Shown here: one piece after another, positions 31,421 to 63,831 of the stretch
Numbering within the stretch: position 1 is the stretch's first letter
Layout: each line of letters opens with the position of its first letter
The notes under the pieces: model-generated
What the model was told of the DNA's origin: nothing
The model's input: only the letters and a program-made list of their open reading frames with translations
Databases searched by the model: none
Source: Acholoe squamosa
Lineage: Eukaryota; Annelida; Polychaeta; Phyllodocida; Polynoidae
Direction: 5' to 3'
Length of the DNA: 64,000 nt
Assembly (NCBI GenBank): GCA_949317995.1
Contig: OX439040.1
Coordinates: forward strand, 73,877,972-73,941,971
Made by a program: the position numbers and the translations under genes

Positions 31421-31423
31421 TAG

Positions 31424-39299: not shown

Positions 39300-39964
39300 T
39301 GTCGACGGACCGTTACAAGTCATGAACATGAGCAACTCAGGAGTCTAGAGAGTACAGTTGATGGATCCACTTTATTGTAGTGTTAGGCAGGTACATGTTG
39401 GCATGGTGATGTACAATGTGTGTGCTGCCCACCTGATCAAGCTAGCTCTATACCAAGGCACTGTGTGTCATAGAGACTAGGTGTGGAGAGAGGAAAGTAA
39501 AGAATAAGAGTATCCCAAGCTAGTCCTGTATTCATATATATAGGAGCAGCTCGGGGTAGGCATGACGTCAGTCTTGGGAGAAGCATGACGTCATGCTTAG
39601 GGATTGGCAAGACCCAACGTGCCTTGCATCATCTCACCCTGGAGGGGGGAGGGGGCTTGCCTAAAGGTGGGTCGAGCTGGCCACCTGTTGGAGGAGCAGC
39701 TCGATCCCTGATTGGCTAGGAATGGAGGTGGGTGTGAGCGCACTCCCACCCTGTACCTAGGGTTAGTGGGGGTCGAGGTCATGACCCCTAGCCAGGATCC
39801 GGAGGTGAATCTGAGGTCACTGGCCAGGAGAGGCAGAGCTGGGTAGAGATACCTGGCTCTGTCAGATCCAAAGGTTTGGTAAAGGGAGCCTTATAGGCGA
39901 GCTTGATCATTCGGCTTAAAATATTTCATATAATAATAAATGAACCTTGAATACCCCATTGACA
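39300..39964 (-). repeat. Element C 3' LTR
   Basis: 665 bases, TG...CA ends. On the minus strand: two TGACGTCA cAMP-response-type sites (39,586-39,593 and 39,563-39,570), a TATATATA box about 30 bases further, and AATAAA at 39,376-39,371. Confidence 0.95.
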
Positions 39965-40520
39965 TATCCCCACATAGCTATTCGATTCTACGCGAATGCA
40001 AAAGGTAGAGAACAAGTTCTTATAATCGTCATTGGACGTTCAAGGTTTGGCAGAACTTTATAAGGTGACTCAAAACTTGGTGAACGTTGTGTATACTTGG
40101 CTTGATACCGGTATAAATGTTTTAACTTACATACTTGAATCATCAACTGTGTGTATAGGTCTACTTCTAAGAACAATAACATCCTCAATGGTGAGGCAGG
40201 TTTCGTTGGAAAGACACATACAAAAATATAGTCGAGCCCACAAGGTCGTGGTGACAGTCTCTACTATGTACTGATTGCTATAAAAATCTTAGAGATACAT
40301 GCAAATCAAGAAAATACACATGGATGAGAAATAATTCGAGAATCCTTGTGGCAACAGTTATGTTGGTTGCTATGTCCTGCCTTGAGCAATCAGGGCAGAA
40401 ACAGCAGTGATACTCTGTCACATATACCGGTTACTGAATGAGATCAAGTGTACATGGTTAACAAGTTTTATATAAAAGTACATGCTTCAAAAATATATCC
40501 TCTACATAGTCGCATATTGA
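39965..40520 (-). other. Element C region next to the 3' LTR
   Basis: TATGTGGGGATA (minus strand, 39,976-39,965) directly abuts the LTR and is the candidate polypurine tract, although it is only weakly purine-rich. A 'ctgccttg.g.aatcagggcag' block occurs at about 40,377 and again at about 40,551. No supported ORF. Confidence 0.45.
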
Positions 40521-40835
40521 CTAGGGCAGTAGTGATATTCCGTGCCATGTGCTGCCTTGGGTAATCAGGGCAGCCACAGCGGTTTCATTCAACGAGGCTT
40601 GCTGCAAGCGTACTTGAGTTTGACTAGTTGACCAATATTGATCATTAAACTCAATAGAAAGCATGTGAACTCTGAAAACTGTCTTGTCGTTTTTAGACGA
40701 TTTGGCAGTAATCTTGCAATACAATAAATACAAAGAAAAATGTAACACGCTGGCTAAGACTAAAACCCATAAATACAAATGCAAATTGTTTTGGGCTTGA
40801 AAAACAGGTATCGTCCTTTTAGAGAAAAAGGTAAC
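40521..40835 (-). CDS. Element C candidate accessory exon with a membrane segment
   Basis: Sense-strand open frame of about 104 codons without an initial ATG. A pyrimidine-rich 'tgtttttcaag' lies near its start, so it may be entered by splicing. Residues about 17-40 are strongly hydrophobic (a likely transmembrane helix), followed by KITAKSSKNDK and a polar C-terminus with one NET sequon. No family was recognised. It could be a small type I or II membrane accessory protein or a chance frame. Confidence 0.3.
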   Translation of the reverse strand, partial: VTFFSKRTIPVFQAQNNLHLYLWVLVLASVLHFSLYLLYCKITAKSSKNDKTVFRVHMLSIEFNDQYWSTSQTQVRLQQASLNETAVAALITQGSTWHGISLLP

Positions 40836-41116
40836 TTATTGGGGGTGGGGGGCTCTGCGGCACCTAGGTTTCTGATTTGACTCAGTATCCTCACAGAGTG
40901 GATTAGCATCAAGAAAAACTTACATGAGGTTTTAAAGATTTCACAGTAATAAATTTGAACGCTTTATATCAGCTTTCTTAAAAATGAATCAGCATATAAA
41001 TTTGTAAACATGTGGTGACTCTGGGAGTCCCATGGGTGGGGGGTGGGAAAAATTGTGTCCCTACAATGTCAGATCAAAGGGATATAAAGTTCATAATTTT
41101 TCATGTGTATGCAGTC

Positions 41117-41894
41117 CTAGTATTTAAATTTTCTTAATTTTGTGCCAATGCTGCTTGGTGGTAAATTGTAGTGTTCCATAGGGGATCTACAGAAGTGTTT
41201 TCCAGCAGCTGATTTTCTCCTCTGTTTGGCTTCCATACTGTATTCGTCATCAAAGGAGTCTATTCTAAATTTTGAGAATGAGACTTCCATAAAAGCCATG
41301 TCTCCAACCTCAGGGGAAGTTGAGGAGGAGGAGGATGAGCTGCTGTCATCAAGGGGTGAGTCTAATGTCATGTTGCTTCTTGGTGGTGGTGTAGGCTTGA
41401 ATGAATGTCTTTTTGAATTTCTGTTGATGGGCCTGAAAGTGGTAAAGGAAGGTGAACTGTGTGCTGTGGCTTGTTCCTGTCTTTGATAATAAGCACAGGG
41501 GCATGCAAAGGTTCCTGGACCGTCCATACATAAGGTACACAGGTTTAAGGTGGCTGGCCTGGTTGGGTGTACAGGCTTGGGGGAAAAATAACTGTCCTTC
41601 CAAGCTGCATAGCCTGGGGGAATTGGAGTTCCAGGCCTGTTGGTTGCAAGTCCTATTTGCGTATAGGACCTGCCGGTGCGGCTTATTGGGTGGCTGGTGG
41701 TGTTGCTCGGGGGCCTTGGGTCTATTGGGCCGGCTGGGAAGTCTTCTTGGTGGGGTTTGCTATTTCTTTTGCTGGTTCGGCTGGTCCAGCTGCTGTGGCA
41801 CCACCTGCTGTAGGGGCTTGGCCTGGGTCTGTAGATGGTGGCGAATCTGTTCCCAGGCTGCGCTTGACCTGGTTGCCCTTCTTCTTTTGTGGTC
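41117..41894 (-). CDS. Element C accessory exon, long ATG-less open frame
   Basis: The frame is open for 280 codons (41,959-41,117) but has no ATG before 41,527. A good acceptor (ctctatctgcag) precedes 41,894, leaving an exon of about 258 codons. The product starts polar and Gln/Pro-rich and continues Pro/Ser/Arg-rich. It has a CTLC...CPC cysteine cluster near 41,540-41,490 resembling a small zinc site, a run of eight serines within an acidic patch, and a basic C-terminus (KQRRKSAAGK, TKLRKFKY). A random 280-codon run without stops is unlikely. A second frame entering at the same acceptor (GPQKKKGNQVKR, then Ala/Pro-rich) is open for 58 codons, so the exon could encode two overlapping proteins. 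Function unknown; a nuclear regulatory accessory protein is a guess. Confidence 0.5.
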
Positions 41895-42033
41895 CTGCAG
41901 ATAGAGACAAAAACAGAGGGGTGTCTGACGTTAGAAACAGGTTGAAAACGTTGTATGGTTCACAAAGCGGTCCACAAAAATACCGAGATTTGACCAAAAA
42001 GGTTAATTTGTCTGTGTGTCGACCATGAAACAA

Positions 42034-42530
42034 AATACAGTAGCATTGGTATTGTTTTGCTTTGGGGCGGTAGCTGTGATTAGGGAAACGGAATTATTTC
42101 ATCGACCTATAGTTTGTTCGTTTTGAGTTGCAGGTAGACCGCGGTCAATACAGAGAAAGGATGTGAGATCAATATTATTTTGTCAACGTACAAAACCTGA
42201 GTACAGAGCTCAATTGATCCACTTGGCTTAGCGCGGGTCCTGTATCCAGGGACGCTATGGTTAGTTTATCTGAATTCCACCAGGTGGTAGTAGCGAGCTG
42301 GAGCTGCACCGTAATGGCGAGGAACCAAATAAGTTATGGGGGTCAAAATACAGGTATGACCTGCTCAGGTCGACTCCTGCCTGTATCGAGTATGCTGAGA
42401 ATTAATTATGTTGATGTTGATTGAAAGAAAATTTATTTTTGGTCGAAAAAAAAAAAAAAGGGGGGGGGCGGACGGAAAAAGAAAAAAAGAGAATTTATTT
42501 CCCTCGCGCCAAATTTTTGATCCGGGGTGC
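42034..42530. other. Upstream region of the antisense microgene
   Basis: It lies inside the putative 44,093-41,895 intron of the sense accessory gene. Homopolymer A and G runs at 42,446-42,468. No ORF. Confidence 0.4.
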
Positions 42531-42538
42531 TATAAAAG
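42531..42538 (+). promoter_or_regulatory. TATA box of the antisense microgene
   Basis: TATAAAAG, 51 bases ahead of the ATG at 42,582. A TGATGTCA (ATF/CRE-like) lies between the TATA box and the ATG. Confidence 0.65.
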
Positions 42539-42581
42539 GGGCGCTCGTCCGTCTGTGATGTCATAATGTTACATAACCAGG

Positions 42582-42818
42582 ATGGAGGTGTTTGAGGTGG
42601 ATCTGATTATGCCCAACGGCACCGTTCTTCACCTGACCATTACCATGTCGGGTGGATTGTAAGTATTTTCTGACTTCAAGAGCGATTTTGAATTTTTTGA
42701 GAATTTGCTTATTCAAAACGTGGAGCTTTGGTTTAATATGGCTTTTAATTTGTATTTCAGCATCACGCAGATCCAATGGCTGATCATCCCTCCTGGCGGG
42801 GCGGTGAACGGTTATTGA
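42582..42818 (+). CDS. Antisense two-exon microgene of element C
   Basis: Plus strand, opposite to gag-pol-env. Exon 1 is 42,582-42,658 (77 bases, ATG start), donor GTAAGT; acceptor 'ttgtatttcag', exon 2 is 42,761-42,818 with TGA. The product is 44 residues: an acidic start with a PNGT motif, alternating hydrophobic beta-like strands, then ITQI and a terminal NGY. A diverged copy at 63,831-63,601 keeps the 77-base exon 1, the phase-2 intron, PNGT, ITQI, terminal NG-aromatic, and a second donor just after the stop (here GTAAGT at 42,820). About half of the residues are identical and most of the rest conservative, while introns are unalike. This supports a real gene. No family was recognised; a further 3' exon may follow. 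Confidence 0.65.
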
Positions 42819-44073
42819 GGTAAGTCTGATCTGAACAAGTTAAAGTCTGAACATGTGCTAATGTTGTTGTTGTGGTAGAGATGCCACGTGCGGGTGTCAC
42901 ATGACCGATTGTAGTCATGGTGACGGCCGTGACGTCCGTCAGTTTCGGTATTTAGAACGAAACCAAGATGGCGCCGGGCTGCCGCGTATGGCGCGAAAGT
43001 AGTCGGGTCAGACGCTGCAACCGGTGCCAATACCGATGAAGATTAATGTAGGCCGATCTATTGTGTTGATTGGGTTAGCTGTGGTTATCATGTTGTTTTA
43101 GCTCAGTGTTGATAATGAAAGCTGTGTGTGGGTGTGTTTTGGGCGTCTTTCGGGGGTTGGGGGGTTCAGTGTGGGGCGGGGGGGAGGGGGGGTAAAGGGT
43201 AGGCTAGTTGGGGGGGGGGCGATCCTCACATAAGCGTCTTTGCGGCGTATGTGTAAAGGCTACCTGCCATCCCCACATAAGTGTGATGGTACCTTCCAAA
43301 CGCTACTGACATTTGGGTATAACCTTGGGACGGTCCAAGGTTATATGATTGTGGGGGGTGGCCGGTAGTCGCTGGGTTGGGACGGTGGTCTCCGTCATGA
43401 ACCGAAACTCGGCCATGTTGGAATGGTGAGTCGAAATTTTACCTACCATAGATTATGTAATAGGCCCTCTCAGCCAGTTTTGAGATTAAACACGTATAGG
43501 CAGTTGGGATGCTGGGCTTCCTGGGGTTCAGGGGACTTGATATAGTGAGCTTGATTTGCTTTGCCGCCGCCTGGGCCCGAGCTTTCTTTCTGCTATGATC
43601 TCTTGGATCGGGGAAACAGTGCCGTGGCTGAATTCGCCGGGCGTCCACTATCAACGCGCGGGGACACTTGTTCTATAAATAGAGTGGGTGGTTCCCCCGT
43701 TGTTATGGTTACGGGTATACTGATAACATGGTTTGTTTTTGATTTAGCCAGTGCACATGTGCTCTACTGAAAAAGGTGACCTATAAGAATTTTGATTTGG
43801 GGGGGGGGGTAATGGGGTTTGGGCTTTTTGAGTGGGGTTGGGGGCCGTGGGAAGATGGCGTGGAGCATTGGGCTTGGAGTAGCCGGGCTGAGTTGTTTAT
43901 GGGCTTATCCCCACATAAAAGGTGATCTCCTCCGGGGTGTGGCTATCCGGTGGGTCGTTCATGGAGAGGGGTTGGGGTCTGTTTACATGATTTTAACAGG
44001 GTGCAAGGTGGCTTAATTGCCGCCTGATTTCCAATTGATGATCCCCACATGTGGCTTGTTGTGGGTTTCTAGA
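42819..44073 (+). promoter_or_regulatory. GC-rich non-coding region with G-tracts and repeated words
   Basis: Downstream of the microgene, 42,895-43,000 ('ggtgacggccgtgacg', 'cagtttc', 'aagatggc', 'ggcgcgaaa') is conserved in the 63.4-63.5 kb copy without a shared reading frame, so it looks regulatory (CRE-like GACGTC and YY1-like AAGATGGC words). G-tracts at 43,151-43,220 could form a quadruplex. The word TCCCCACATA recurs (43,270, 43,908, 44,042 with one change). No convincing ORF. Confidence 0.5.
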
Positions 44074-44093
44074 TTAAAAATAAATAAACTTAC

Positions 44094-44421
44094 CGCTGGG
44101 GGATGTCTTTTTGGGCCTTTCATCTGATGTGGTGGGGTCAAACAGATATTTGTCTGACCCCGGTTGTAGCTCTAGGTTAGTGAACTTAGTGAGTTCCACC
44201 AAACTCCTAGAGGTAGAGGGGACTTCCATTTTGGGGCATAAGGAGGATCTATATCTTGTGGGTGGTGATAGCTGGGGCATTGGGACAGTGTCTGATGGTG
44301 AGAGCTGGAAATCCGGCTGTCCCTTTTCCTTAATCACCAGGGTCAAGACATGGGGGCTGGATGTTAGAGCCTTGTGGAGTCGTAGCCTCCAGAACAGAGG
44401 GCATCTAGGGTAGCGCTCCAA
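44094..44421 (-). CDS. Element C post-env ORF ending at a splice donor
   Basis: Sense-strand open frame that begins directly after the env stop in another frame (first codon TTG, not ATG) and reaches a strong donor (CAGCG|GTAAGT) at 44,094/44,093. The 109 codons read as a polar, Pro/Ser-rich sequence with ELTKFTNLELQPG and a terminal DERPKK. Its donor phase fits the acceptor at 41,895 in the GPQKKK frame. That would splice it to the accessory exon, leaving the antisense microgene inside the intron. The start may be an upstream spliced leader. Function unknown. Confidence 0.4.
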
Positions 44422-44422
44422 T

Positions 44423-46753
44423 TTAACCTGCTTGATCTTCCCGGCGATTATAAAGGTCCAGGTGGCGGCCGAAAGGGCTGGTCAGTCGGGGCTTAGCCAC
44501 CTTGGGTGCCATAATGGAAAAAGGCCACAGGTTTCTGCCGAAAATCATTCTGCCAACGACGAAGTCGTAGGTTCTACCCTCTGAGTGGATTTGGAGGACG
44601 AATTTTGGCATCTCCGTGATATCATCCACCCTGGTTAGGTAGGGCCAGTGTCGCCAGCATCTCCTGGCCAAAGCGCGGGCCAGGTACAAAGCCAGGAAAA
44701 CCAGGATCCAGGCCCACATGGTATCATACCTGCCGGCCTGGTATGGAGACTGGTATTCCTCCATGCTGCTCTCTGCATGTGGCGAAGTTGTTGCCTGAGG
44801 CGGCCACAAGCTGCTGATGTTCAGCACTAGCTTTCTTAGGGTGTCGAACTTTGCCGCGTCCGCCATGGTTGGTGTCTTCAGCGCAATGTGCATGGTGACT
44901 AGCTGCGCCAGTCTCGTCACGCGCAGTTGACCGTGGCACGTGATTGCACAACACAAGATGGCCAGTAGCGGGGACAGAAGATGTAACCAGGGGGAATACT
45001 CCAGATGGTAGCCAAGATGCATTAATGTGTTCACTGACCAGAAAGGTCTTGACTTGGTCAAACCCAGGGCGGCTTTCCTGAGGGCGATTACTTCTTTAAA
45101 TATAGGCAATAATCTTTGGTTGTGGAGGTGTTTTAAATATTCAAAATTTGGTAGATCTAGGGTCCGGGGAATGGTTGTCATGGTGACGCCTGAAACATTG
45201 GCTGGTGGGTTGCCAAAGTGGCGCCATAGAGGGAGGTTGATGGGTATCCTAACAAGGGGCTGTAGTGTAGTGTTATGTATGCAGGAAAGGTTTGAATTTA
45301 TCATTATCATTCCAGCATTTCTAATTGAGCACATGCATGGTACTGATATTACTGAAGAGGCTGCGTTTTTAAGCTCAATTTGGCCTTCATTGGGACATAG
45401 CATAAGTGAGGGTGATTCATTGGTAATTAACAGGTAGTCTGAATGTGATATAGACTTAACTAAGCGTGGAATGGGGGCGGACATGTGTACAGCAAAGCTG
45501 CATGTGTGGTGTACTGCATCTGGTGTGTCTAACAGTAGTGACAGGGAGCATGTGGGGTGTAGGGGTGATAACAAGGGTAGGGGCAGGTCACAACTGATAA
45601 AGGTATCATGTGTACACAGGTCCATGTCGGCTTGTTGTAGCTCAATGTAGTGTGAGTGGGTTGATGGTAGTGCTATAAATGGGGGTAGTTTTTGTAAAAG
45701 GGTGTATCCTAGTGAATGGGGGTCGGAGGTATCGAAGGGGATGGGGAAGGTTTCTGTTCTATATATAGAATAGGTATTTTCCCCTAGGCCTATGGGTACC
45801 GGTATGGTTATAAGTAATGTGGTATTATCATTCCACTGTGCTCTAACTTTCCTTTTGTAGTAGAAGTCTACCGGTAATTTCAGAATATTTATTTCTGGGT
45901 GGTTGCTACTGAGGGCGTCTGAAAGGTTATTCAGTCCTATTTCTAATGTGTCGTGTGGAATGAGGGTAAGGGGTAGCTCGCCCTCCATGAGTGAATTTAG
46001 AGCAGATAATAGGTTGCTTAAGTCATCATGGAGATCGATTAGTGATTCTATTTGTGAATTTGCGGCCGAAAATAGCATGGAGTAGAAGGTATCTTGTTTG
46101 GTTTGTGATTCCAAATTTAGAAAAATGTCAGAAAGGTTTGAATTTAAATTTTGAAATTTATTTGCTAACAGTGATAAGGCATCATCTGTATCATTTTGGA
46201 ATTCTGAGAAAGCGGTGAGTGTGTGATAATTATATTCTGAAATATTTAAGAGGAAATGTGTGGCTAGTTCAACTACATGCATTTTGGTAGCGAATCTTTT
46301 ATCCAACTCTGACATTTCTGAATTTAGGATATCAATTTCAGGCTGTGTTCCCAAACCTACCAGGATTCTCAGGATATCTCCTATGGGCTGGCCTGGGGCA
46401 TTTCTTGGATATCTCATGCTGGGCGGGCTTACCATTTTGATTAGTTCATTCAGTAGGGTCTGTGATTTGTAGAAAAGGTTATCTAACATGTGATCCAAAT
46501 TTGTGGCTGTTTGGGTTATGTATGGAGGTGCGCTGGGTTTCACTAGTGGTGAGATATTGTCTGGTTTTCTGAGGGGCTGGTCTAGGGTCAGGTTTAGGCT
46601 TAATACTAGTGGGTAATCCATATAGTTGGAGAGGAGGGGTTGGTCCATTTTTGTGAAAGTCACTCCAAAATTTGGTCTGAAGATGGTCCTTTGGTTAAAT
46701 TCCTGGTGTACCAATCCGACAGTTGTGGCTAGGATTGCTGCTAGGGTAGTCAT
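44423..46753 (-). CDS. env: Element C envelope glycoprotein
   Basis: Intact frame of 776 codons from the ATG at 46,753. The longer open frame to 46,828 includes a poly-T acceptor (AG at 46,768-46,767) and is intronic. The N-terminus is a signal peptide (MTTLAAILATT...). The ectodomain is about 580 residues with many sequons and clustered cysteines (LCPNEG, PCMCS). Around ORF residue 135, RYPRNAP then GDILRILVGLG corresponds to the fusion-peptide region of element A env. Two hydrophobic segments follow (about 610-630, LLSPLLAILCC, and about 705-722, WILVFLALYLA), with an 80-residue tail. The layout matches element A env, and a fragment of a relative lies at 63 kb. Likely a baculovirus-F/errantivirus-like fusion protein (inference). 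Both LTRs and this ORF are undamaged. Confidence 0.75.
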   Translation of the reverse strand: MTTLAAILATTVGLVHQEFNQRTIFRPNFGVTFTKMDQPLLSNYMDYPLVLSLNLTLDQPLRKPDNISPLVKPSAPPYITQTATNLDHMLDNLFYKSQTLLNELIKMVSPPSMRYPRNAPGQPIGDILRILVGLGTQPEIDILNSEMSELDKRFATKMHVVELATHFLLNISEYNYHTLTAFSEFQNDTDDALSLLANKFQNLNSNLSDIFLNLESQTKQDTFYSMLFSAANSQIESLIDLHDDLSNLLSALNSLMEGELPLTLIPHDTLEIGLNNLSDALSSNHPEINILKLPVDFYYKRKVRAQWNDNTTLLITIPVPIGLGENTYSIYRTETFPIPFDTSDPHSLGYTLLQKLPPFIALPSTHSHYIELQQADMDLCTHDTFISCDLPLPLLSPLHPTCSLSLLLDTPDAVHHTCSFAVHMSAPIPRLVKSISHSDYLLITNESPSLMLCPNEGQIELKNAASSVISVPCMCSIRNAGMIMINSNLSCIHNTTLQPLVRIPINLPLWRHFGNPPANVSGVTMTTIPRTLDLPNFEYLKHLHNQRLLPIFKEVIALRKAALGLTKSRPFWSVNTLMHLGYHLEYSPWLHLLSPLLAILCCAITCHGQLRVTRLAQLVTMHIALKTPTMADAAKFDTLRKLVLNISSLWPPQATTSPHAESSMEEYQSPYQAGRYDTMWAWILVFLALYLARALARRCWRHWPYLTRVDDITEMPKFVLQIHSEGRTYDFVVGRMIFGRNLWPFSIMAPKVAKPRLTSPFGRHLDLYNRREDQAG

Positions 46754-46768
46754 CAGGACTGCAGCCCT
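46751..46768 (-). promoter_or_regulatory. Env splice acceptor and UGAUG overlap
   Basis: A 14-T tract and AG (46,768-46,767) precede the env exon. If spliced from the donor at 47,039/47,038, the upstream frame ends at TGA (46,755-46,753), which overlaps the env ATG as TGATG. Confidence 0.5.
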
Positions 46769-47038
46769 AAAAAAAAAAAAAATTTCAAGAATATGTAGGG
46801 TCTTAGAAAAATGGTTTTGAAATGACATGAGGGAGTAGCGGTTTGTGTGTGTGTGTGTGGGGGGGGGGGTTTTGCACTGGGTGTTTGTTTGTGTGTGGGT
46901 GGTTAGGTGTGGGGTATTGGTGAGATAACAGGTTTGGGGGAAAAGGGTGTGGGGTAGGGTGGTATCTTTGTGTAATATTGGTTAGTAAGGTGTTAGGAAA
47001 AATTATAAAAATATAATGTGTGAGTGTTGGTAGCTTAC

Positions 47039-47578
47039 CCCTGCGTGAGTCTAAGCCGGGTACTTGGAGCCGGAAATATCTGGACCTGCCTGACCAGTAA
47101 TACCATTCAAAGATGGCCTGTTGGAGAACCAGATCTATCGAATTGTTGATTGCTAGGCTCCTGCCGACACTTGTATAGTGTCTAGGCAGATTAGCTAGCG
47201 GCTTCTCTGAAGCCAGGAGTGTCCTTGCGCTCAATAGGGCTAAGTAACTAGCCACATGCTGGTCAAACCTCGCCCAGATAGGTTTAGTGGGTGTGTCGGA
47301 GCACACCATAGTAAGTACTGTTTTTATGACAGCTTGAACACGATCATTGGTTAAATCCATTTGCTTTAATACAGCAGGGTTTGTCAAGTAGAAAGCCACG
47401 TCACAGGGAGATATTCCCAGGACCAAGTTCCTATATCGGCAGATGAGAGATCTTAATTCAAGGATTTCTCTATCAGCATCCAATAATCCCACAGGACCCA
47501 ATAGGTCATGTATGGTCCAGCAATCAATGGTGTCCAATCTGTGGTTGGAAAGAATGAAATTTTGCGGGGTAAGTCTAC
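47039..47578 (-). CDS. Element C exon between pol and env, unknown product
   Basis: Open for more than 200 codons with no usable ATG at its start. It is bracketed by an acceptor-like 'ctattacacag' (before 47,578) and a strong donor (GG|GTAAGC after 47,039), so it reads as an internal exon of 540 bases. The product is helix-rich: DCWTIHDLLGPVGLLDADREI, then ISPCDVAFYL, DLTNDRVQAVIKTVL and EWYYWSGRSRYFRL; no signal peptide or membrane segment. Spliced to the env acceptor it ends six codons later at UGA overlapping the env AUG. I recognise no family. Low-complexity GT-rich sequence (46,840-46,960) downstream of the donor is intronic. Confidence 0.5.
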
Positions 47579-47679
47579 CTGTGTAATAGGTTGGTTGAGT
47601 GTATTGAGATGTTAGGTTCACACGAGATGGAGGATTCAGCAGGCACAAATATTGGGCAGTGAAGAGTGATGATCATTCA

Positions 47680-48930
47680 ACTTTTTCTAGATACTCTGAG
47701 CTCACACTACCATTGGTGAATTGAGGAGTCTGGGCAGTATGACAATAAATATGTCATTACCAAATACAAGAACGACTGATGGTCTATGTACTGAAGTGGA
47801 CACTTAAGACAGGCCTACCTGGGCTGGCTGCATGCCCTGTTCGCCATGGTTATCTTCAATCAGGCACTTGCTCTCAGAAAAACAGGAAGTGGTTGGATGT
47901 GGTGTATTGTTGAGAATGGATAAGATTTGGGGTGGGTCAAGGCTTATAAACCTGGTCGTGAGGGAAGCTAACCCTCAGTTGCAGGTCTCCCATGTAGGTA
48001 TGTCTTGCCCTTAAAAGGCTAGGCCTTATCTTATTGGATATATGCAGTGGGGGCATGCCTGCCCCGTATGCAAATTTCTGGTGGCCTCAGCGCTGAGGCC
48101 TGGTATGTATTGATTAAAAATTGGAAATTTTAGGTCAAGAAGGTTGGTAGATGCAGGTCAAGGTTATGATTGAATTCTGACCAGGTGGGTTGCCTGCTTT
48201 GTGGAAGCTCGGCCAATCAAAATAGTATTCCACCTGCATTACTGGATCTGAGAAAAACAGAGGTGCAAACATGGTTGGAGCATGGGAGACAGGGACGCCT
48301 ACGTGTCGGTGGCAAGAATACCGAATTTAACAGGAGTCCTGACAAGCCATCAAGCCGGTGCAAGAATATATAAAATAAAAAATTTTATACATATACCCTA
48401 GAATGCACTGCTGCCTTGGGTAGTATATGTGGCGTATCGAACCATTAAGTGTGGGTGTGCTGAGAACGTCCATGGGCGCGGAAAAATTAAATCTACAAAA
48501 CTCATGTGAGTGTTGTGTAACTTTCATACAATGTACAACAAGAGGAAAAAGGTGTGTTGGTGTTTATGGGAAGGGAGAAATTGATAAAATAGAAAACAGA
48601 AAAGTAAAGAAAGAAAATATGGAATGGGGGTTGGGTATTGGGAGGTTTCTGGGAGGTGGTCAGTATTTAGTGTTGGACAGGTGGTGTGTGGGGCGCTGGG
48701 TGCAATGTGGTTGGTATGTATATGTTCTGAGGGTAATATGTTTGGTAAATTAAGGGGGGGGGGGCGGTGTTGGATGCGGATTTCTGCACTTGATCAGGGA
48801 TCCAGGTGTAGGCACGTGGTGGTTATCCAGATCACTGATGCATAGGATGGAGGTATGCTTGGCTTGCAGTGTATTTGGTTGTGGTTTTGGGGGGGGGGCT
48901 GTGCTTTTGGTGTGTGAGAGTGTGTAGTTT
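47680..48930. other. Spacer between element C pol and the pre-env exon
   Basis: No supported ORF on either strand; G-runs at 48,752-48,763 and 48,890-48,898. It may hold the regulatory or splice signals for env messages. Confidence 0.4.
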
Positions 48931-48936
48931 GTGTAT

Positions 48937-51900
48937 TTATTTTTGCTGATGGCGCTTTTTAGCCTTTTTAGGTGGTGAGAAGCTGACAATACCCTTTTTG
49001 GCTGGTCTCCCTCTTTTTCTTTTTGGTGGGGGAGTGGGGGTATTGGTAGAAGGTGTTAAGTTCAAATCTGGGTCGTAGAGAGATAAAGCCGGGCCAGTCT
49101 GTAGTCTTTTGACTATGGCTTTGGCGCTGGCTCTGGATGTTGGTGTTCTCAATCTGGACACATGTACTGCTTTTTTGAAAACTTTTCCATCCTGCAATCT
49201 TTTAACAATTGCAGTTACTGATGAGGTCATTTTCACGATGATATATGGGCCAGAGTAGGTAGGCTGCAGCTTTTTGCTTGTATGTTTTACCAACAGGTTG
49301 GGAATGTGTAAATACACGAGCTGACCTGTGGTGTATGTGCTAAGTTCTGCTGAGGCATCATGTTTCGCCTTCATCTTTTTGTGCACTTTGATCATGTTTT
49401 CTGCTGCCTTCAATTGAATATCATCCCTGAGGTTGAGCAAATGTAGGGCCATACCTTCCCTTTGTTTCACATCACTTAGTGATGTGCCCAGTGCTAGGGC
49501 TGCTTCTGTTGGCAAGTGAGATTGTTTGCCAAATACCAAAAGGTTTGGTGAGTAGCCTAGAGCGCTGGAGACTGTATTGTTCATGCTGAAAATTACAGCC
49601 TGTAAGAAGGTAGACCAGTGTTTTTGTGATTTTGACACAAAGGCTCTCAGGGAGGATTCAATAGTCTGGTGTTGGCGCTCACATAGAGCTTGTGATCTGC
49701 TCCAATGTGCCGACCCTGTGACATGTTTAATGCCAAATTTCTTGCAGAAAAGTGCGAAGAATTTTGAGGTGAATTGTTTGGCATTATCAGTGTTAAGTAC
49801 TGATGGTGTACCGTGGATGCAAATGACTCTTTGGAAGAATCCAAGTGCCACAATGGCGCTTGTGTTTTCCTCCGTTGACCATGCAGTGACATGCCTGGTG
49901 GCATGGTCCGTCACTACATGTATGTAGTGTGAGCCATCTACAGCCTTGGAGAAAGGGCCTATAGTGTCCATAGTTAAATGGGAATAGGCAGTCAGTACCG
50001 GTTCACGAAGGGTCATAGGTGTTTTGAGATTTTTGGGCTTCTTTTTGGTTGTGAGGCATGCATGACATGTGCCACAGAAATCAAACACCTGTTTGAACAT
50101 TGAGCGCCAGTAGTAACGCGACCTTATGGCTGCATAGGTTTTCACTGAACCCAGGTGGCCACCTAGAGGTGAGCAGTGGGTGGATTCAATGAGGGACTCT
50201 GCCCAGATTTCTGGGATCACGATTTGTAATGTAGGATCCAATGAGTGGCCCATTACAGTATCTGTGATCCTGAAAAGTACCTCGTCAAGAATGATGAACT
50301 GATCATGGTTTCTTAAAATCTGATTTATTAAACCAGAGTCATATGGCAATTGACCTTTTTCAATGTAATTTAGCATGGATGAGGCAAAAATGTCTTTTTG
50401 TTGAGACTCAATTAATGCTTCTCTTGATGGGGTGAGGGAGTGATGTTTGCAAATTTTGGTGATGGCGCTCTCAGCTATAGGTAATACCTTCTGGGACAAC
50501 TTGACCCTTCTAGCATTGGCGGCCTTCACTGAAACCCTGGGTGACCTGGACGCACTGGGTCGACCCCTTGACCTAGTTGTGGTGGTTTTGACCTCCTTAG
50601 GTCGGGTCGGCTTGGTGTGCTTGGTGCTGGGTTCTGATTGGTCAATGGTCGGGGGTGTGTCTTGTGTGTTCCGGGACTGGGCCCTGGTCAAGACGCACAG
50701 CTCTGAATATCCCTTGGGTGTTTCAGAATATATTCTTTCAGAGCTATTTTTCTTTGCAACCACTCCTCTTGGTAATTTTCCTGTACTTCCCCAAATTCTT
50801 CCTCCCTTTAATATTGATCTGGGAGGTCCCATTAAAACAGGATTATTTGGTACTGGCGCATTTGATTTGAAAACCTTGGTCATGGTGATATCAGAGAAAG
50901 TCACTTTCTTAGGGGGGAGGATGATCTGTCCCTTTGATCTTATTGGTACTGGATCATCAGAGCTTGGTGGGTATTTTCTCCTGGAGAGAAAATCAGCCAC
51001 AATATTGGCTCTGCCCTGCAGGTATTTTACTTCAAAATCATATGACATGACTGTATCCACCCATCTAGCCAATCTTCCATTTGTGATGTTCTCTTTTTTA
51101 TTGAAAAGAGAGACTAGGGCTGTATGGTCTGAGTACACTTTGAAGTGGGTTCCATCCACATAGTGGTGGAATTTCTTTACCGCATAGACAATGCCTAAGA
51201 GTTCCTTGTCTGTTATACCATATCTGGTTTCTTGAGGGGTCAAACCTCTTCCTGCAAATTCTATTGGCCTGTAGAAACCATGTTCATCAACCTGAGTGAT
51301 CACGGCTCCTAGGCTGTAATTACTTGAGTTGGTGAAAATCACAAAGGGCTTCCTGTAATCAGGGAATTTGAGGATGGCTTCAGTGCAGATTGAGGCCTTG
51401 ATTTTCTCAAAGGCTCTTTGACAGTCTGCGGTCCATACAAAAGCACTCTTGGTGGCATCGTAGAGGGGCTTCATTATGTGGGCAAAACCCTTAATGAATC
51501 TTTTGTAGAATTGTGCCATACCATTAAAACATCTAAGGTCATGGATGTCTTTAGGTGGTGGGAAGGTTTTGACTGGCCAGATTTTGTCCGGGGAAGGTGA
51601 CACACCATGTTGGTCTACGGAAAAACCCAAGAAATCCATCTTGGTTGTGCCAAATTCACATTTTTCAGATTTCAGTTTGATATTTCCCTTTATGAAAAGT
51701 TTGAGTACCTCATCTAGATCTTGTAGATGTCTCTCCCAGGTGGGACTGTATATGGCTACATCATCGACATAGGCTACAGCGTTTCTGTATTTACATTTCA
51801 TGAGTAGCTGCTCCATAACATTCATGAAGGATAAGCCTGATGTTTTGAGTCCCATAGGCAATATTTTTGCCATGTATCTGGTTCCATTTGCAGAGAAGGT

Positions 51901-53061
51901 GGTGATTGGTCTGGATTCTTCCGCTAGGGGGATCTGGTGGTAGGCGCTGTAGACATCCAGTTTAGAGAAAAACTTGGCGCCTGTTCTACCAATTTGCTGC
52001 ATGAGATCGTCTGCCCTGGGGAAGGAATATGAGAAAGACTTGAGGTTTTGATTAACCCATCTGTAGTCCACTACAATTCTCCACCCTGATGCTACAGATC
52101 TGTCGCCTTGGGGTTTTGGTACCAAGAAGGCTGGGGAGTTCCACTCACAAGGTTTTGTACATTCTTCAATTACTCCCTGCTTCAGGTGTTTCTCCAGGAG
52201 CTCTCTTTGAAAAATTTCCTTGTGTGGGGACATTCTGTATGACGGTCTGTTACAGGGTTTGAAGTCTGGGATCAGTTCAAGTTTGATCTCATTCTCTATA
52301 TTTAGACCAATAGCACTGTCATTAAGTACAAAGGCCTGCCTGTTTTCTTCAACAATATTGCGGATTTGCTCCTTCTGTTTGTCACTGAGCTGCTCACAGA
52401 TTTTATACTTTAGAGGCTCGTTGCTTTTAGGGAGCTGTTGCAATGGATCATCCCCACAATTAATTGGGAAAAGATCTTTGGCAGGTCTGCTGTCCTTTTT
52501 GGAGGGCTGCTGGTTGTCAAGGGAACCTATGGGCACAGCCTTTTCAATGTTGAAAAGCTTAAAGGTGCCTAGGGTGGTATGTCTTTTCAGTGGTACGGGA
52601 AAATCATTTGGATTTGCCATAGTTACCGGTATTAATTTTGATTCTGTCTTGGGTTTAACCAAGGCATGTTTGATCAGTATTGGTAATCTGAGACCAATGT
52701 TTTCAGTGATGCCTGTTGAGTTAATAATTTCCTGTGGCCCAGCTACAAAGGCATTTAGAGTTGCTTCAGAATTTGGTGGGATGATTGAATCTTCAGTAGG
52801 TCTGATTGGGTATCCTATGGGGGGTTTTGGTCCGAAACTGAGCCTGGCCTTGTATTTGGTCATGAAATTTACGCCAAGGATGAGTGGGTGGTTCAGTTTA
52901 GGGACGATATGGAATTTACAAGAGAATTCTGCTCCCTGAATCAAGAATTTTAGTGTTATTGAGTTGTTTACCTGTACTGAGGATTTGTCTGCTAGGAGTA
53001 CAACAAGTCTGGATCTTTTACCATGGAGGAAGTTGGGGCTGTTTGACACTCTATCTGCCAT
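48937..53061 (-). CDS. pol: Element C Pol: protease C-part, RT, RNase H, integrase
   Basis: Intact 1,374-codon frame. Residues 1-77 complete the protease (HPLILGVNFM). RT spans about 270-500: FSKLD (D369), LPMGL, YVDD at 431-434. RNase H is about 570-695: the first catalytic Asp is replaced (IFTNSS, N578) while E620, D645 and D690 are present. A basic linker has an AT-hook-like RGRP at 832-835. Integrase: H962, H969, Cys 996-1002 finger; catalytic D1032, D1092, E1128 with exact D35E spacing; GPY at 1271-1273. The C-terminus is strongly basic with a second RGRP (1350-1353). There is no chromodomain; the AT-hooks may serve chromatin targeting. It is entered by a -1 shift from the protease frame (AGAAAATGG, about 53,062). 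The Asn in RNase H is odd for an otherwise intact young element. Confidence 0.92.
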   Translation of the reverse strand: MADRVSNSPNFLHGKRSRLVVLLADKSSVQVNNSITLKFLIQGAEFSCKFHIVPKLNHPLILGVNFMTKYKARLSFGPKPPIGYPIRPTEDSIIPPNSEATLNAFVAGPQEIINSTGITENIGLRLPILIKHALVKPKTESKLIPVTMANPNDFPVPLKRHTTLGTFKLFNIEKAVPIGSLDNQQPSKKDSRPAKDLFPINCGDDPLQQLPKSNEPLKYKICEQLSDKQKEQIRNIVEENRQAFVLNDSAIGLNIENEIKLELIPDFKPCNRPSYRMSPHKEIFQRELLEKHLKQGVIEECTKPCEWNSPAFLVPKPQGDRSVASGWRIVVDYRWVNQNLKSFSYSFPRADDLMQQIGRTGAKFFSKLDVYSAYHQIPLAEESRPITTFSANGTRYMAKILPMGLKTSGLSFMNVMEQLLMKCKYRNAVAYVDDVAIYSPTWERHLQDLDEVLKLFIKGNIKLKSEKCEFGTTKMDFLGFSVDQHGVSPSPDKIWPVKTFPPPKDIHDLRCFNGMAQFYKRFIKGFAHIMKPLYDATKSAFVWTADCQRAFEKIKASICTEAILKFPDYRKPFVIFTNSSNYSLGAVITQVDEHGFYRPIEFAGRGLTPQETRYGITDKELLGIVYAVKKFHHYVDGTHFKVYSDHTALVSLFNKKENITNGRLARWVDTVMSYDFEVKYLQGRANIVADFLSRRKYPPSSDDPVPIRSKGQIILPPKKVTFSDITMTKVFKSNAPVPNNPVLMGPPRSILKGGRIWGSTGKLPRGVVAKKNSSERIYSETPKGYSELCVLTRAQSRNTQDTPPTIDQSEPSTKHTKPTRPKEVKTTTTRSRGRPSASRSPRVSVKAANARRVKLSQKVLPIAESAITKICKHHSLTPSREALIESQQKDIFASSMLNYIEKGQLPYDSGLINQILRNHDQFIILDEVLFRITDTVMGHSLDPTLQIVIPEIWAESLIESTHCSPLGGHLGSVKTYAAIRSRYYWRSMFKQVFDFCGTCHACLTTKKKPKNLKTPMTLREPVLTAYSHLTMDTIGPFSKAVDGSHYIHVVTDHATRHVTAWSTEENTSAIVALGFFQRVICIHGTPSVLNTDNAKQFTSKFFALFCKKFGIKHVTGSAHWSRSQALCERQHQTIESSLRAFVSKSQKHWSTFLQAVIFSMNNTVSSALGYSPNLLVFGKQSHLPTEAALALGTSLSDVKQREGMALHLLNLRDDIQLKAAENMIKVHKKMKAKHDASAELSTYTTGQLVYLHIPNLLVKHTSKKLQPTYSGPYIIVKMTSSVTAIVKRLQDGKVFKKAVHVSRLRTPTSRASAKAIVKRLQTGPALSLYDPDLNLTPSTNTPTPPPKRKRGRPAKKGIVSFSPPKKAKKRHQQK

Positions 53062-53453
53062 TTTCTGGCTATAAAAGATAGGGAGGCACCTGAGTCTATC
53101 AATGCTCTGTATAGATGGTCATTTATGTCGACAAACACAGATCCCTCAGTCAAATCGGTATTAATGTAAGAGACCTTACCTTGCTGCCCATACTTATCTG
53201 TTTTGATCCTAAGTCGCAGTCTGGACACCCTCCTGCTGTCGTCCTCACAGCAGTCCTCACTGTCTGAAGATGAGCTGTAATCCAGTTTTGGTTGGGATTT
53301 TATTTTGTTTTTGCTGGTAGGGGGCCGTAGAGAATTGAGTTCTGCATCACTGTGAACACCAGTAGGTTGATGGCTTGTGGGGGGCGTTCCAGGTTTCTTT
53401 TTCACTGAGGTGGGGGCGGGGTTGCTAGGTGCAAGGTAGCCTTCCCCTGAAAC
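52992..53453 (-). CDS. pro: Element C protease N-part, in frame after the gag UAG
   Basis: The frame is open directly after the gag stop UAG (53,456-53,454) with no intervening stop, giving about 16 codons before the first GTG and 137 more. A polar Lys/Ser-rich linker leads to the aspartic-protease active site (ALIDSGAS). The rest of the enzyme lies in the pol frame; the two frames overlap at 53,061-52,992. Reading back one base at AGAAAATGG joins them. No AUG opens this frame, so expression would need UAG readthrough. Confidence 0.75.
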   Translation of the reverse strand, partial: VSGEGYLAPSNPAPTSVKKKPGTPPTSHQPTGVHSDAELNSLRPPTSKNKIKSQPKLDYSSSSDSEDCCEDDSRRVSRLRLRIKTDKYGQQGKVSYINTDLTEGSVFVDINDHLYRALIDSGASLSFIARKWQIECQTAPTSSMVKDPDLLYS

Positions 53454-54800
53454 CTATTCATTGTCGTTTGTATCGTGGTCATCCTCTTCATGGTCATCCT
53501 CTTCTGGGTTGCTGTCCATATTATTGAGGTTGGCTTCACTTTCTGACTCAGAGGTGTATTTATTTGAGTCCCTTTTAGGGTATCTGCCAGGGGTTCTGTC
53601 TCTGGGCTTCCTTTTGGCCTGAGATATGTCGTCAGTGATGGTGAAGTCAGAGGGGACCATGAGTTTCTTGAAGGATACCTGAGTGTTGTCAGTGGGAGTG
53701 GTGGCTACAGGGATGAAGAATACATTGCTGTTGCTGTCACTGGACTGAGATCTCCTGTAGTTACTTGGAGAAGTGCCCCTGTTGCTGTAGGGCTGGTTGT
53801 TTCTGTTGTAAGACTCAGACCTGTCGCCAGAAGGGGTTCTAAATCTGGTCCTCCTATTGTTGGGGTCGGATTGATTGTTAAAACCACTTCTGTACTTGGC
53901 TTCATATTGCTTGTTATAGCTACCACTGGGGAGTCTGTCTTCCTTCTTTTGGTTGTTATTTTGGTAGTTGTCTTTTCTGGATCTCTGATAGCTATTTTTC
54001 GTGTTGTTGTTCTTGTTGTTATTGTAGCTGTTGTTGTGGCCCATGGCGCAGAGGTCTGCTGAGTGGCTGGAGGCCTGGGCAATTCTATTTGCTTCTATGT
54101 TCAGCTCCTGCTTGAGTGCTAAACGTTCAACATCAGCTATTTTCTCAGGAGTGTCGGACAGAACCACATTTTTAATTTCTGGTCTGAGGCCATTGAGCAG
54201 GTAGTCTACCTGAACGGACTCATCTAGGTTACTGTTGGCCAGTAGTAGAGTCATGTCTGAGATGTAATCCTCTACTAACTCTTTTGGTTGCTGTTTTCTG
54301 GTTCTGTACCCTTTAATGATAGTTGCAGGGTCAAGCTGGCCAAAGCGCTTCAGGAAAGCTGTGTAAACGGCTTCAGCATCATAGATGATGGGCTTATCAA
54401 ATATGTTGGCGTAGAACCATTGAGCAGCTCTGCCTTTGAGGAAGGTATACATGCATGATGCATGTAGGTCAGGCCTAGTGGCGTGGACATTCCTGATCCA
54501 GAATTTAAATTCTGCTATGAATTTGGAGGCAGATCTGTATGGAGATGGTTTGTCAAAATGCTCAGGTTTGTTGAAGGAGCTCATTTGAACTGAGGTGAGT
54601 TTGTCATGATTTAAGCTCATGTTACCCATGTTTCCAGTGATGTGTGCAGGTGCCTGTGGGTATGGGGTTGAGTGTTGGCCTGTAGCACTCATTGTTATTG
54701 GAGTGTGTGAGTGCGGGGTTTGCATAGGGATGGGCTGGTGGCTGGGGGTTTGCCCTTGAGGTGAGTAGTATACATCCCTGTAAACCGAACTCAGGTTTGT
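53454..54800 (-). CDS. gag: Element C gag (capsid and nucleocapsid)
   Basis: The first ATG is at 54,725, giving 423 codons; the frame is open back to the UGA at 54,803-54,801. Residues about 45-215 are a retrotransposon gag capsid-like domain (FKFWIRNVHA, AAQWFY, FLKRFGQ, ELVEDYISDM). About 230-330 is Asn/Arg/Tyr/Gln-rich without a CCHC knuckle, so RNA binding probably relies on Arg-rich low-complexity sequence, as in element A. It ends acidic (EEDDHEEDDHD) at UAG 53,454, followed in frame by protease. Confidence 0.85.
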   Translation of the reverse strand, partial: TNLSSVYRDVYYSPQGQTPSHQPIPMQTPHSHTPITMSATGQHSTPYPQAPAHITGNMGNMSLNHDKLTSVQMSSFNKPEHFDKPSPYRSASKFIAEFKFWIRNVHATRPDLHASCMYTFLKGRAAQWFYANIFDKPIIYDAEAVYTAFLKRFGQLDPATIIKGYRTRKQQPKELVEDYISDMTLLLANSNLDESVQVDYLLNGLRPEIKNVVLSDTPEKIADVERLALKQELNIEANRIAQASSHSADLCAMGHNNSYNNNKNNNTKNSYQRSRKDNYQNNNQKKEDRLPSGSYNKQYEAKYRSGFNNQSDPNNRRTRFRTPSGDRSESYNRNNQPYSNRGTSPSNYRRSQSSDSNSNVFFIPVATTPTDNTQVSFKKLMVPSDFTITDDISQAKRKPRDRTPGRYPKRDSNKYTSESESEANLNNMDSNPEEDDHEEDDHDTNDNE

Positions 54801-56609: not shown

Positions 56610-56644
56610 GGCTCATGAGAGGTGATAACAATGGAATCTTCTGA

Positions 56645-56658
56645 GGGTTTCTCCACCA
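56645..56658 (-). promoter_or_regulatory. Element C primer-binding site (tRNA unassigned)
   Basis: One base after the 5' LTR the minus strand reads TGGTGGAGAAACCC, the TGG expected opposite the tRNA CCA end. The tRNA is not identified with confidence. Confidence 0.55.
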
Positions 56659-56659
56659 T

Positions 56660-57324
56660 TGTCGACGGACCGTTACAAGTCATGAACATGAGCAACTCAG
56701 GAGTCTAGAGAGTACAGTTGATGGATCCACTTTATTGTAGTGTTAGGCAGGTACATGTTGGCATGGTGATGTACAATGTGTGTGCTGCCCACCTGATCAA
56801 GCTAGCTCTATACCAAGGCACTGTGTGTCATAGAGACTAGGTGTGGAGAGAGGAAAGTAAAGAATAAGAGTATCCCAAGCTAGTCCTGTATTCATATATA
56901 TAGGAGCAGCTCGGGGTAGGCATGACGTCAGTCTTGGGAGAAGCATGACGTCATGCTTAGGGATTGGCAAGACCCAACGTGCCTTGCATCATCTCACCCT
57001 GGAGGGGGGAGGGGGCTTGCCTAAAGGTGGGTCGAGCTGGCCACCTGTTGGAGGAGCAGCTCGATCCCTGATTGGCTAGGAATGGAGGTGGGTGTGAGCG
57101 CACTCCCACCCTGTACCTAGGGTTAGTGGGGGTCGAGGTCATGACCCCTAGCCAGGATCCGGAGGTGAATCTGAGGTCACTGGCCAGGGGAGGCAGAGCT
57201 GGGTACAGATACCTGGCTCTGTCAGATCCAAAGGTTTGGTAAAGGGAGCCTTATAGGCGAGCTTGATCATTCGGCTTAAAATATTTCATATAATAATAAA
57301 TGAACCTTGAATACCCCATTGACA
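56660..57324 (-). repeat. Element C 5' LTR
   Basis: 665 bases, TG...CA. On the minus strand: CRE sites TGACGTCA at 56,953-56,946 and 56,930-56,923, TATATATA box at 56,902-56,894, AATAAA at 56,736-56,731. This is a compact U3-R-U5 with cAMP-response-type input. Confidence 0.95.
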
Positions 57325-63254: not shown

Positions 63255-63600
63255 CGTCCACATAACTCATCACTCTTCACAGTACACCGATCGTGGTAAA
63301 ACCACAATCTTTTTTTGACTAAGCTAAAGGAGATGATTAAGAACATCAAGTTGAGCTAACACATTATACACTGTTACTTATTCAAAGAACGCCAACCACA
63401 GTGCCTGGTTAAACTTTTCGCGCCAGTCGCATCAGTCCGGTGCCATCTTGAATATGCATCGATGTATTGAAACTGACGTCTGTCACGGCCGTCACCACGG
63501 TAACCAACCATTTGGTGACGCCCTAAACTGTTGCATGCATCATAACAACAACATTGACACGTGTTAACATGACTTTTTGCTCAGTAAACTTTCACCTACC
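63255..63600 (-). promoter_or_regulatory. Diverged copy of the element C GC-rich region
   Basis: 63,420-63,520, read on the minus strand, aligns with 42,895-43,000: GGTGACGGCCGTGACA, CAGTTTC, AAGATGGCACCGG, GGCGCGAAAAG. The short AAGATGG-start frame is not conserved, so regulation rather than coding is suggested. Confidence 0.55.
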
Positions 63601-63831
63601 TCAGAAGCCGTTCTGGGCCCCTGACTGAACGACTGTAAGCACGATTTGCGTTATACTGGAAATAAAAACAAATCTTTCTCTTTAGAAAGGCAAACCAAAC
63701 ACAAAATTAATTCAAAATTCCGAATTTGAGACGCAATTTTGATAAATTACCCACCTTCCGTTGGTCATGGTGACTGAAAGATGGATCGCTGTCCCGTTAG
63801 GGAAAAAGATGTCAATCTCATAGATTTCCAT
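63601..63831 (-). CDS. Diverged copy of the two-exon antisense microgene
   Basis: Minus strand. Exon 1 is 63,831-63,755 (77 bases, ATG), donor AAG|GTGGGT; acceptor 'tttttatttccag', exon 2 is 63,655-63,601 with TGA, followed by another donor-like GTAGGT. It encodes 43 residues with PNGT, HLS, ITQI and terminal NGF in the same places as the element C gene. The nearby env fragment shows that it belongs to a second, older element that runs out of the window. It may start upstream of 63,831, where the frame is open. Confidence 0.6.

What the first reader, a model, noticed from the sequence alone, without database searches (positions are those of the whole stretch)
42531..42820. Antisense two-exon microgene inside an 18-kb retroelement, conserved in a second copy
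Between env and the 3' LTR of element C, on the opposite strand, a TATA box is followed by a 77-base exon, a 102-base GT-AG intron and a short second exon encoding 44 residues. The 63.6-63.8 kb copy has the same exon 1 length, the same phase-2 intron, the same PNGT and ITQI motifs, the same NG-aromatic end and a donor just after the stop. Flanks and introns have diverged far more than the coding bases. I know of no described Ty3/Gypsy element with such a gene.
Basis: partly seen in the sequence, partly recalled or inferred. Interest (0 to 1): 0.9.

Follow-up and report, generated by a model that had tools for sequence, protein, structure and literature searches.

The report
Hypervariable antisense microgene in a retroelement

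Summary
Window 42531-42820 (+) holds a TATA box, a 77-nt coding exon, a 102-nt GT-AG intron and a 58-nt exon (44 aa), antisense to an 18-kb Ty3/Gypsy-like element, between an env-like ORF and the 3' LTR. Of the 40 best-scoring copies of its family 39 are intact; of 40 in the second, older family 17 are. Selection on the protein is purifying (family 2: pN .20, pS .65, 21 copies).

Between the families introns and flanks differ most, but within them the exons usually do, mainly at synonymous sites. In family 2, 80-92% of non-CpG third codon positions are shared polymorphisms, against 4% of intron or post-stop and 15-19% of further flank sites. An element 98-99% identical to the window's in env and pol pieces carries a microgene differing at 47% of third positions.

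Antisense ORFs in LTR elements are known (plant aORFs, HBZ); this exon-limited hypervariability I found in no paper seen. Best guess: an accessory protein whose mature mRNA is under selection to differ because it pairs with genomic RNA and seeds silencing. That step is inferred; there are no RNA data, and old alleles with recombination remain a serious rival.

The parts
39300..57324 (-). Host element C (Ty3/Gypsy-like, sense strand minus), 665-bp LTRs 39300-39964 and 56660-57324
   Evidence: LTRs 99.7% identical; TGTCGA...TTGACA ends and a CTGC duplication read from the sequence printed
48937..53061 (-). pol ORF, 1374 aa: RT, RNase H, integrase in that order
   Evidence: Pfam RVT_1 3.4e-29, RT_RNaseH 2.2e-33, rve 2.2e-14
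44423..46828 (-). env-like ORF, 801 aa (label by position; no family match)
   Evidence: 0 Pfam families; none of 7994 scored candidates at E<=0.001; 22% identity, E 8e-28, to the 611-aa ORF region 27612-29150
42532..42539 (+). TATA box of the antisense microgene (TATAAAAG)
   Evidence: TATA motif in 40 of 40 family-1 copies
42582..42658 (+). microgene coding exon 1 (77 nt)
42659..42760 (+). GT-AG intron, phase 2, 102 nt
   Evidence: GTAAGT and CAG in 40 of 40 family-1 copies
42761..42818 (+). microgene coding exon 2 with stop TGA
42820..42825 (+). conserved second splice-donor-like site, one base after the stop
   Evidence: 39 of 40 family-1 copies have GGTAAGT; 38 of 40 family-2 copies have GT there
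63588..63831 (-). second-family microgene (exon 1 63831-63755, intron 63754-63656, exon 2 63655-63601, then a donor)
42918..42998 (+). CpG-rich block conserved between the two families, with CRE-, YY1- and E2F-like words (motif names recalled)
   Evidence: 75.6% identity to 63497-63416, E 1.8e-9; words located (the exact CRE-like word in family 1 only)
41117..41959 (-). sense ORF y between microgene and 3' LTR, probably a spliced 3' exon
   Evidence: between-group pS .085-.225, pN .017-.045 over 41117-41527 in 20 of 21 group comparisons; open to 41959
44087..44093 (-). possible sense-strand splice donor after env
   Evidence: GGTAAGT in at least 31 of 40 rows (six commonest forms listed)

Best explanation
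An LTR element of the Ty3/Gypsy kind carries an accessory gene of 43-44 codons on the antisense strand, with its own TATA promoter and one intron. Shown here: the exon-intron anatomy, purifying selection on the protein, and unusually strong, mainly synonymous variation of the exons while intron, promoter and post-stop sequence are nearly constant within a family. Inferred: the gene is transcribed and spliced, and its small, probably beta-rich product helps the element. The mature mRNA is complementary to the genomic RNA over the exons only, so exon duplexes seed a sequence-specific silencing system (siRNA or piRNA). Elements whose exons differ in letters from those of resident relatives escape cross-silencing, while the protein must stay the same. 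The gene would then act as an incompatibility-group determinant, formally like the antisense RNAs that set plasmid incompatibility (recalled).
For: Coding: 39 of 40 family-1 copies intact, 17 of 40 in family 2; synonymous excess P 2.5e-5 to 3.1e-4 in three pairs; family 2 pooled pS .654, pN .200 in 21 of 40 copies. Exon-limited variation: family-2 third positions differ at .50-.52, intron .083, 60 nt after the stop .083; shared polymorphisms at 80-92% of non-CpG third positions, 4% of non-CpG intron and post-stop, 0 of the promoter, 15-19% of further flank; sharp at both splice borders and the stop, and starting about 10 nt before ATG, about 31 nt after the TATA-like word, where a start site is expected. 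Letters rather than protein: window and L010 differ at pS .28 with one residue changed, while their env and pol pieces are 97% and 98% identical. Invariant residues such as P11 and G13 vary freely at the third base. Co-inheritance across the intron: the exon-1 nearest neighbour is within the top three for exon 2 in 29 of 40 (chance about 3); in 12 disjoint pairs that are reciprocal neighbours for both exons, third positions differ at 74 of 491 and the intron at 56 of 1065, P 4e-10. No editing signature: transitions .61 of third-position changes.55 of non-coding changes in sister pairs.
Against: No RNA or small-RNA data. The second donor implies a further exon, yet no other hypervariable block was seen in about 650 nt after the stop. 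Exons are not more different than saturation predicts: longest shared runs average 12.6 nt, against 9.6 when codons are drawn at random, so active avoidance of matches is not shown. In family 1 the deepest comparisons do not show slow introns: L085-L087 against the other types have intron .33-.43 with third positions .33-.49, and L084/L024 has intron .077 with third positions .05. In close co-inherited family-2 pairs the excess over flank is modest.164 against .092 in the 10 pairs whose flank aligns (counts). Intron and post-stop look constrained relative to further flank (.04 against .15-.19). Env also varies more than flank (.17-.19 in distant family-2 pairs).
Confidence: 0.35

Rival explanations
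1. An ordinary antisense accessory gene whose alleles are old and kept by balancing selection. Frequent template switching, which needs homology and so is blocked inside diverged exons, has homogenised intron, flank, env and pol; the exons only look fast.
For: Recombination is plain: groups E and F share the microgene (pS .018) but differ at ORF y (.171), F and G share ORF y (.006) but not the microgene (.096). Whole cassettes including promoter and intron differ between elements alike in env and pol (L085). Exon-1 and exon-2 distances correlate only weakly (Mantel rho .27).
Against: No gradient inside the intron: sites 5-15 nt from exon 1 are nearly invariant. Exons 1 and 2 tend to be co-inherited (29 of 40), and co-inherited pairs still show exon over intron. 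Alleles with almost the same protein are far apart synonymously.
Confidence: 0.3
2. A regulator of the HBZ or gene23 sort, not involved in RNA conflict. Third positions show the true neutral rate of old lineages; promoter, intron and post-stop are slow because they are functional.
For: Intron and post-stop are slower than further flank (.04 against .15-.19 non-CpG shared polymorphism). ORF y also has synonymous difference above most non-coding DNA.
Against: Env and pol pieces in the same copies are 97-99% identical, capping their synonymous difference near .12 and .08 by my arithmetic, against .28-.47 for the microgene. Further flank is still about five times less polymorphic than third positions. 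The intron is unalignable between families, so it is not held for good.
Confidence: 0.2
3. Amino-acid diversifying selection (an arms race at the protein level) drags synonymous sites along.
For: In family 2 pN (.20) exceeds the intron difference (.083).
Against: pN is well below pS in nearly every pair (L003/L006 is an exception with 3 nonsynonymous and 0 synonymous changes); 8 of 44 columns are invariant in 12 diverse intact copies; synonymous sites lead.
Confidence: 0.1

Closest known systems
Antisense additional ORFs (aORF-3R) of plant Ty3/Gypsy elements: maize Grande gene23, rice RIRE2, Silene Retand (PMC7264820, PMC11963269; passages seen)
   Same: Antisense ORF between pol and 3' LTR, kept in most copies; gene23 has its own upstream antisense promoter; a regulatory or dsRNA role has been proposed.
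   Different: There the ORFs discussed are mostly long (over 600 bp) and many encode TRP28; here 44 codons, two exons, beside an env-like gene, no TRP28, and exon-limited synonymous hypervariability.
HBZ of HTLV-1 and APH-2/3/4, antisense retroviral genes (PMC10186651; passages seen)
   Same: Antisense, spliced, accessory, downstream of env.
   Different: HBZ and APH transcripts start in the 3' LTR at TATA-less promoters; here a TATA box lies about 2.6 kb inside the LTR. No bZIP, no sequence match.
Mytilus chilensis Steamer-like element antisense mRNA (PMC10974842; passages seen)
   Same: An antisense mRNA of a mussel LTR retrotransposon.
   Different: The passages I saw concern an IRES in its 5' UTR; no spliced microgene was mentioned in them.
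Plasmid antisense incompatibility determinants (recalled, no call)
   Same: Works-like analogy: a short antisense RNA whose sequence defines who represses whom, variable in an otherwise shared replicon.
   Different: Bacterial, non-coding. Here a coding, spliced mRNA, and repression is not shown.
Conotoxin genes (PMC3862624; passages seen)
   Same: Introns conserved within a gene superfamily beside diverse coding sequence.
   Different: There amino-acid change leads (recalled). Here synonymous change leads and the protein is held.

Membership tests
Ty3/Gypsy-type LTR element (host element) | LTR pair and RT - RNase H - integrase order in pol | tested here: met
   LTRs; Pfam matches in that order. 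No RT tree was built.
Plant aORF-3R (gene23, Retand) | ORF antisense between pol or env and the 3' LTR, kept in copies | tested here: met
Plant aORF-3R (gene23, Retand) | own antisense promoter active in vivo | not testable with these tools
   TATA motif kept in 40 of 40 family-1 copies, but no RNA data
Plant aORF-3R (Retand) | TRP28 domain (PF04195) | tested here: not met
   no Pfam family for the window proteins; only a chance-level DUF match (E 0.3) in 1 of 12 copies
HBZ/APH antisense retroviral genes | promoter in the 3' LTR | tested here: inconclusive
   a conserved TATA box lies about 2.6 kb inside the LTR; the start site itself is not mapped
HBZ | bZIP domain | tested here: not met
   no Pfam match
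HBZ/APH | spliced antisense mRNA | tested here: inconclusive
   splice sites conserved and no match across the junction in the genome; no RNA
RNA incompatibility determinant (works-like) | sequence-specific repression of like by like | not testable with these tools
   only the variation pattern is known

The most novel reading that the evidence does not exclude
Endogenous LTR elements sort into RNA 'incompatibility groups'. The spliced antisense mRNA of a conserved microgene is at once the message for an accessory protein and the trigger or target of sequence-specific silencing, and selection drives synonymous recoding of its exons so that new lineages escape cross-silencing by residents.
Probability: 0.25. 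Interest if true: 0.92.

Novelty: new variant of a known kind. Interest (0 to 1): 0.76.

Why it matters
Synonymous sites are the usual neutral yardstick. Here they vary several-fold more than a neighbouring intron while the protein is preserved. If confirmed, it would be a natural case of selection on coding RNA sequence as such, and would give a direct test of how related retroelements coexist under small-RNA silencing. It also adds a two-exon microgene in an element with an env-like ORF to the antisense accessory genes known from plant Ty3/Gypsy elements and deltaretroviruses.

Tried and rejected
Chance ORF: rejected by frame conservation and syn/nonsyn counts. Fossil: rejected for family 1 (39 of 40 intact); most family-2 copies are decayed (17 of 40 intact). 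Known family: none in Pfam at the default level, none in the protein collection, only chance-level PDB matches, best E 0.48 and 0.95. Processed, intronless copies: 0 of 72 matches from 40 scored of 279 candidates cross the junction. CpG decay as the cause: non-CpG third positions are still 80-92% shared-polymorphic. Editing: no distinct spectrum (three of its 12 pairs have badly aligned flank). Active avoidance of long matches beyond saturation: not seen. Ascertainment by microgene similarity: loci chosen by env similarity include the most divergent family-1 microgenes. Of those 8 loci, 5 parsed as complete genes (L084-L087, L091), L088 has lost the stop, L090 has an exon-1 deletion, L089 missed the gene; only the 5 were counted. 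Env codon counts in family 2 (20 of 40 loci, pooled env pS .42, pN .35, microgene .63 and .19) were set aside because many pairs align out of frame. Paper searches listed no paper whose title or abstract start describes this pattern; the library is open-access only. The host species was not identified.

Full report
WHAT IS THERE. Element C runs on the minus strand between 665-bp LTRs (39300-39964 and 56660-57324, 99.7% identical). Its ORFs include a gag-like one (53454-54725, Retrotrans_gag E 4.9e-4, below Pfam's cut-off), pol (48937-53061) with RT, RNase H and integrase matches, and an 801-aa env-like ORF (44423-46828). The last has no Pfam match and no relative at E 0.001 among 7994 scored candidates, so 'env' is a label by position; it is distantly similar to an ORF in another element of the window (27612-29150, 22% identity, E 8e-28). 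On the plus strand, between env and the 3' LTR, lie TATAAAAG (42532), ATG 42582, exon 1 to 42658, a 102-nt intron, exon 2 from 42761, TGA 42816-42818, and GTAAGT at 42820.

IS IT A GENE. The genome search scored 40 of 661 candidates (90-100% identity). All 40 keep a TATA motif, ATG, GTAAGT and CAG, and 39 are intact; L022 has lost the stop and second donor in a deletion. Synonymous changes exceed nonsynonymous ones: window against L036, 12 to 4 (P 2.5e-5); L010 against L024, 14 to 5 (5.9e-6); L008 against L023, 8 to 2 (3.1e-4). A few very close pairs do not show it (L003/L006, 0 to 3). The 63.6-63.8 kb copy belongs to a second family, of which 40 of 208 candidates were scored (79-100%). It is older: 17 of 40 are fully intact. 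For the 21 copies without frame breaks (some lack ATG or a splice base) pooled pS is .654 and pN .200. In 12 diverse intact copies 8 columns of the protein are invariant. 37 of 40 family-2 loci show an env fragment beside the gene on the other strand. A spliced-sequence search gave 72 matches, none crossing the exon junction. A profile found only the two known loci in the window and the 10 kb after it.

WHAT IS STRANGE. Between the two families that is so; within family 2 it is reversed. Over 2.3 kb the median pairwise difference of 60-nt windows is mostly .05-.12 (.137 in the outermost window.13-.17 in a CpG-rich stretch after the gene) and rises to .33 and .27 over exons 1 and 2, with .067 in the intron. 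By codon position: third .50-.52, first .18-.30, second .11-.16; intron .083; 60 nt after the stop .083. Site by site the change is abrupt at each splice border and at the stop, and begins about 10 nt before ATG. Counting polymorphisms shared by at least four copies, third positions give .88 and .94 (non-CpG .80 and .92); non-CpG intron .04, post-stop .04, promoter 0, further flank .15-.19. With CpG sites included these become .11.18.12 and .25-.27. Three or more alleles, each in four or more copies, occur at 62% of exon-1 and 28% of exon-2 third positions, at 0-1% of intron, post-stop and flank sites and at 4% of promoter sites. Pairs exist with env .072, upstream .069 and intron-plus-post .080 different but third positions .60 (L061/L063); on average, though, env differs by .17-.19 in distant pairs, more than flank.

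CONTROLS. Family 1 allows comparison within the same copies. The last 1.2 kb of env scored 95-98% in the 39 further copies listed (40 of 1066 candidates scored) and a 1.2-kb pol piece 98-99% in 39 (40 of 1299). Of the 40 microgene copies 17 appear in the env list and 21 in the pol list. Copy L010 has env 97% and pol 98%, which caps synonymous difference at about .12 and .08 (my arithmetic), while its microgene pS is .28 and its protein differs by one residue. Sense ORF y, itself under purifying selection, has between-group pS .085-.225 in 20 of 21 comparisons (F-G .006); the microgene exceeds it in 18 of 21, with .207-.468 in 17. The exceptions are B-C, E-F and E-G. Inside groups, which were drawn by microgene type, the microgene varies less than ORF y, by construction. 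An element picked by env similarity is the most extreme: C16:42.50 Mb has env 98% and pol 99%, but microgene third positions .47, first-second .16, intron .34, promoter .32 and post-stop .043 different from the window.

RECOMBINATION OR SPEED. Recombination is certain (E-F and F-G; L084/L024, where intron exceeds exon). In family 1 the deep types L085-L087 differ from the rest in the intron (.33-.43) as much as at third positions (.33-.49), which speaks for old cassettes; but within that type L085/L086 have third positions .35 and intron .042. In family 2 the exons keep company: the exon-1 nearest neighbour is the exon-2 nearest in 18 of 40 and within the top three in 29 of 40, chance about 3; Mantel rho .27, P .002. 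In 12 disjoint pairs that are reciprocal neighbours for both exons, third positions differ at 74 of 491, the intron at 56 of 1065 and the post-stop at 70 of 782 (third against intron P 4e-10). These counts include decay after insertion. Further flank is badly aligned in two of those pairs; in the other ten it is .092 against .164 for third positions, a modest excess (counts). Fisher tests of single family-1 pairs used counts converted from the ratios. Spectra of exon and non-coding changes are alike, so RNA editing is unlikely.

MECHANISM. Shown: a constrained protein, hypervariable exons, a steady intron within each type. Inferred: transcription, splicing, an accessory function, and selection on RNA letters. 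The simplest agent that sees exons but not introns is the mature antisense mRNA, which can pair with genomic RNA over exons only. A dsRNA/siRNA role for antisense transcripts of such ORFs has been suggested for plant elements (PMC7264820, passage seen). Recoding of exons would free an element from silencing seeded by its relatives. Weak points: no RNA data; the second donor implies a third exon, and no further hypervariable block was found in about 650 nt downstream; old balanced alleles with homology-limited recombination could give much of the same picture; intron and post-stop may carry their own constraint. A sense-strand donor near 44093 (GGTAAGT in at least 31 of 40 rows), with ORF y beyond the microgene, suggests that the microgene sits in an intron of a sense mRNA (inference).

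AGAINST THE KNOWN. Antisense ORFs between pol and the 3' LTR are established in plant Ty3/Gypsy elements, and spliced antisense genes in HTLV (passages). This gene shares position and orientation with the first and a two-exon plan with the second. It fails their domain tests (TRP28, bZIP), and its TATA box lies inside the element, not in the LTR. I therefore call it a new variant of a known kind; the exon-limited synonymous hypervariability is the new part.

Noticed in passing
window 30274-30747 (-): Another antisense ORF (157 aa, single exon, CATAAAAG about 45 nt before its ATG) lies downstream of the env-like ORF of a different element in the window; 40 further matches (81-96% for the full-length and near-full ones) came from 40 scored of 1122 candidates. 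Its coding constraint was not tested.
   Followed up: partly
window 42918-42998 and 63416-63497: A CpG-rich block with YY1- and E2F-like words (names recalled) is conserved between the two families, 75.6% over 82 nt: a possible promoter or enhancer.
   Followed up: partly
window 41117-41959 (-): Sense ORF y without a conserved start codon, under purifying selection in family 1: probably a spliced 3' exon.
   Followed up: partly
family-2 loci L044-L083, env side: Env fragments of family-2 copies often read in different frames on either side of the same place (20 of 40 loci examined), as if the env gene of that family were long broken.
   Followed up: partly
window 7-33 kb: Long direct repeats in two or three copies, mostly 97-100% identical and about 6.8 kb apart, and a tandem array of 50-bp period at 31365-31746.
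   Followed up: no
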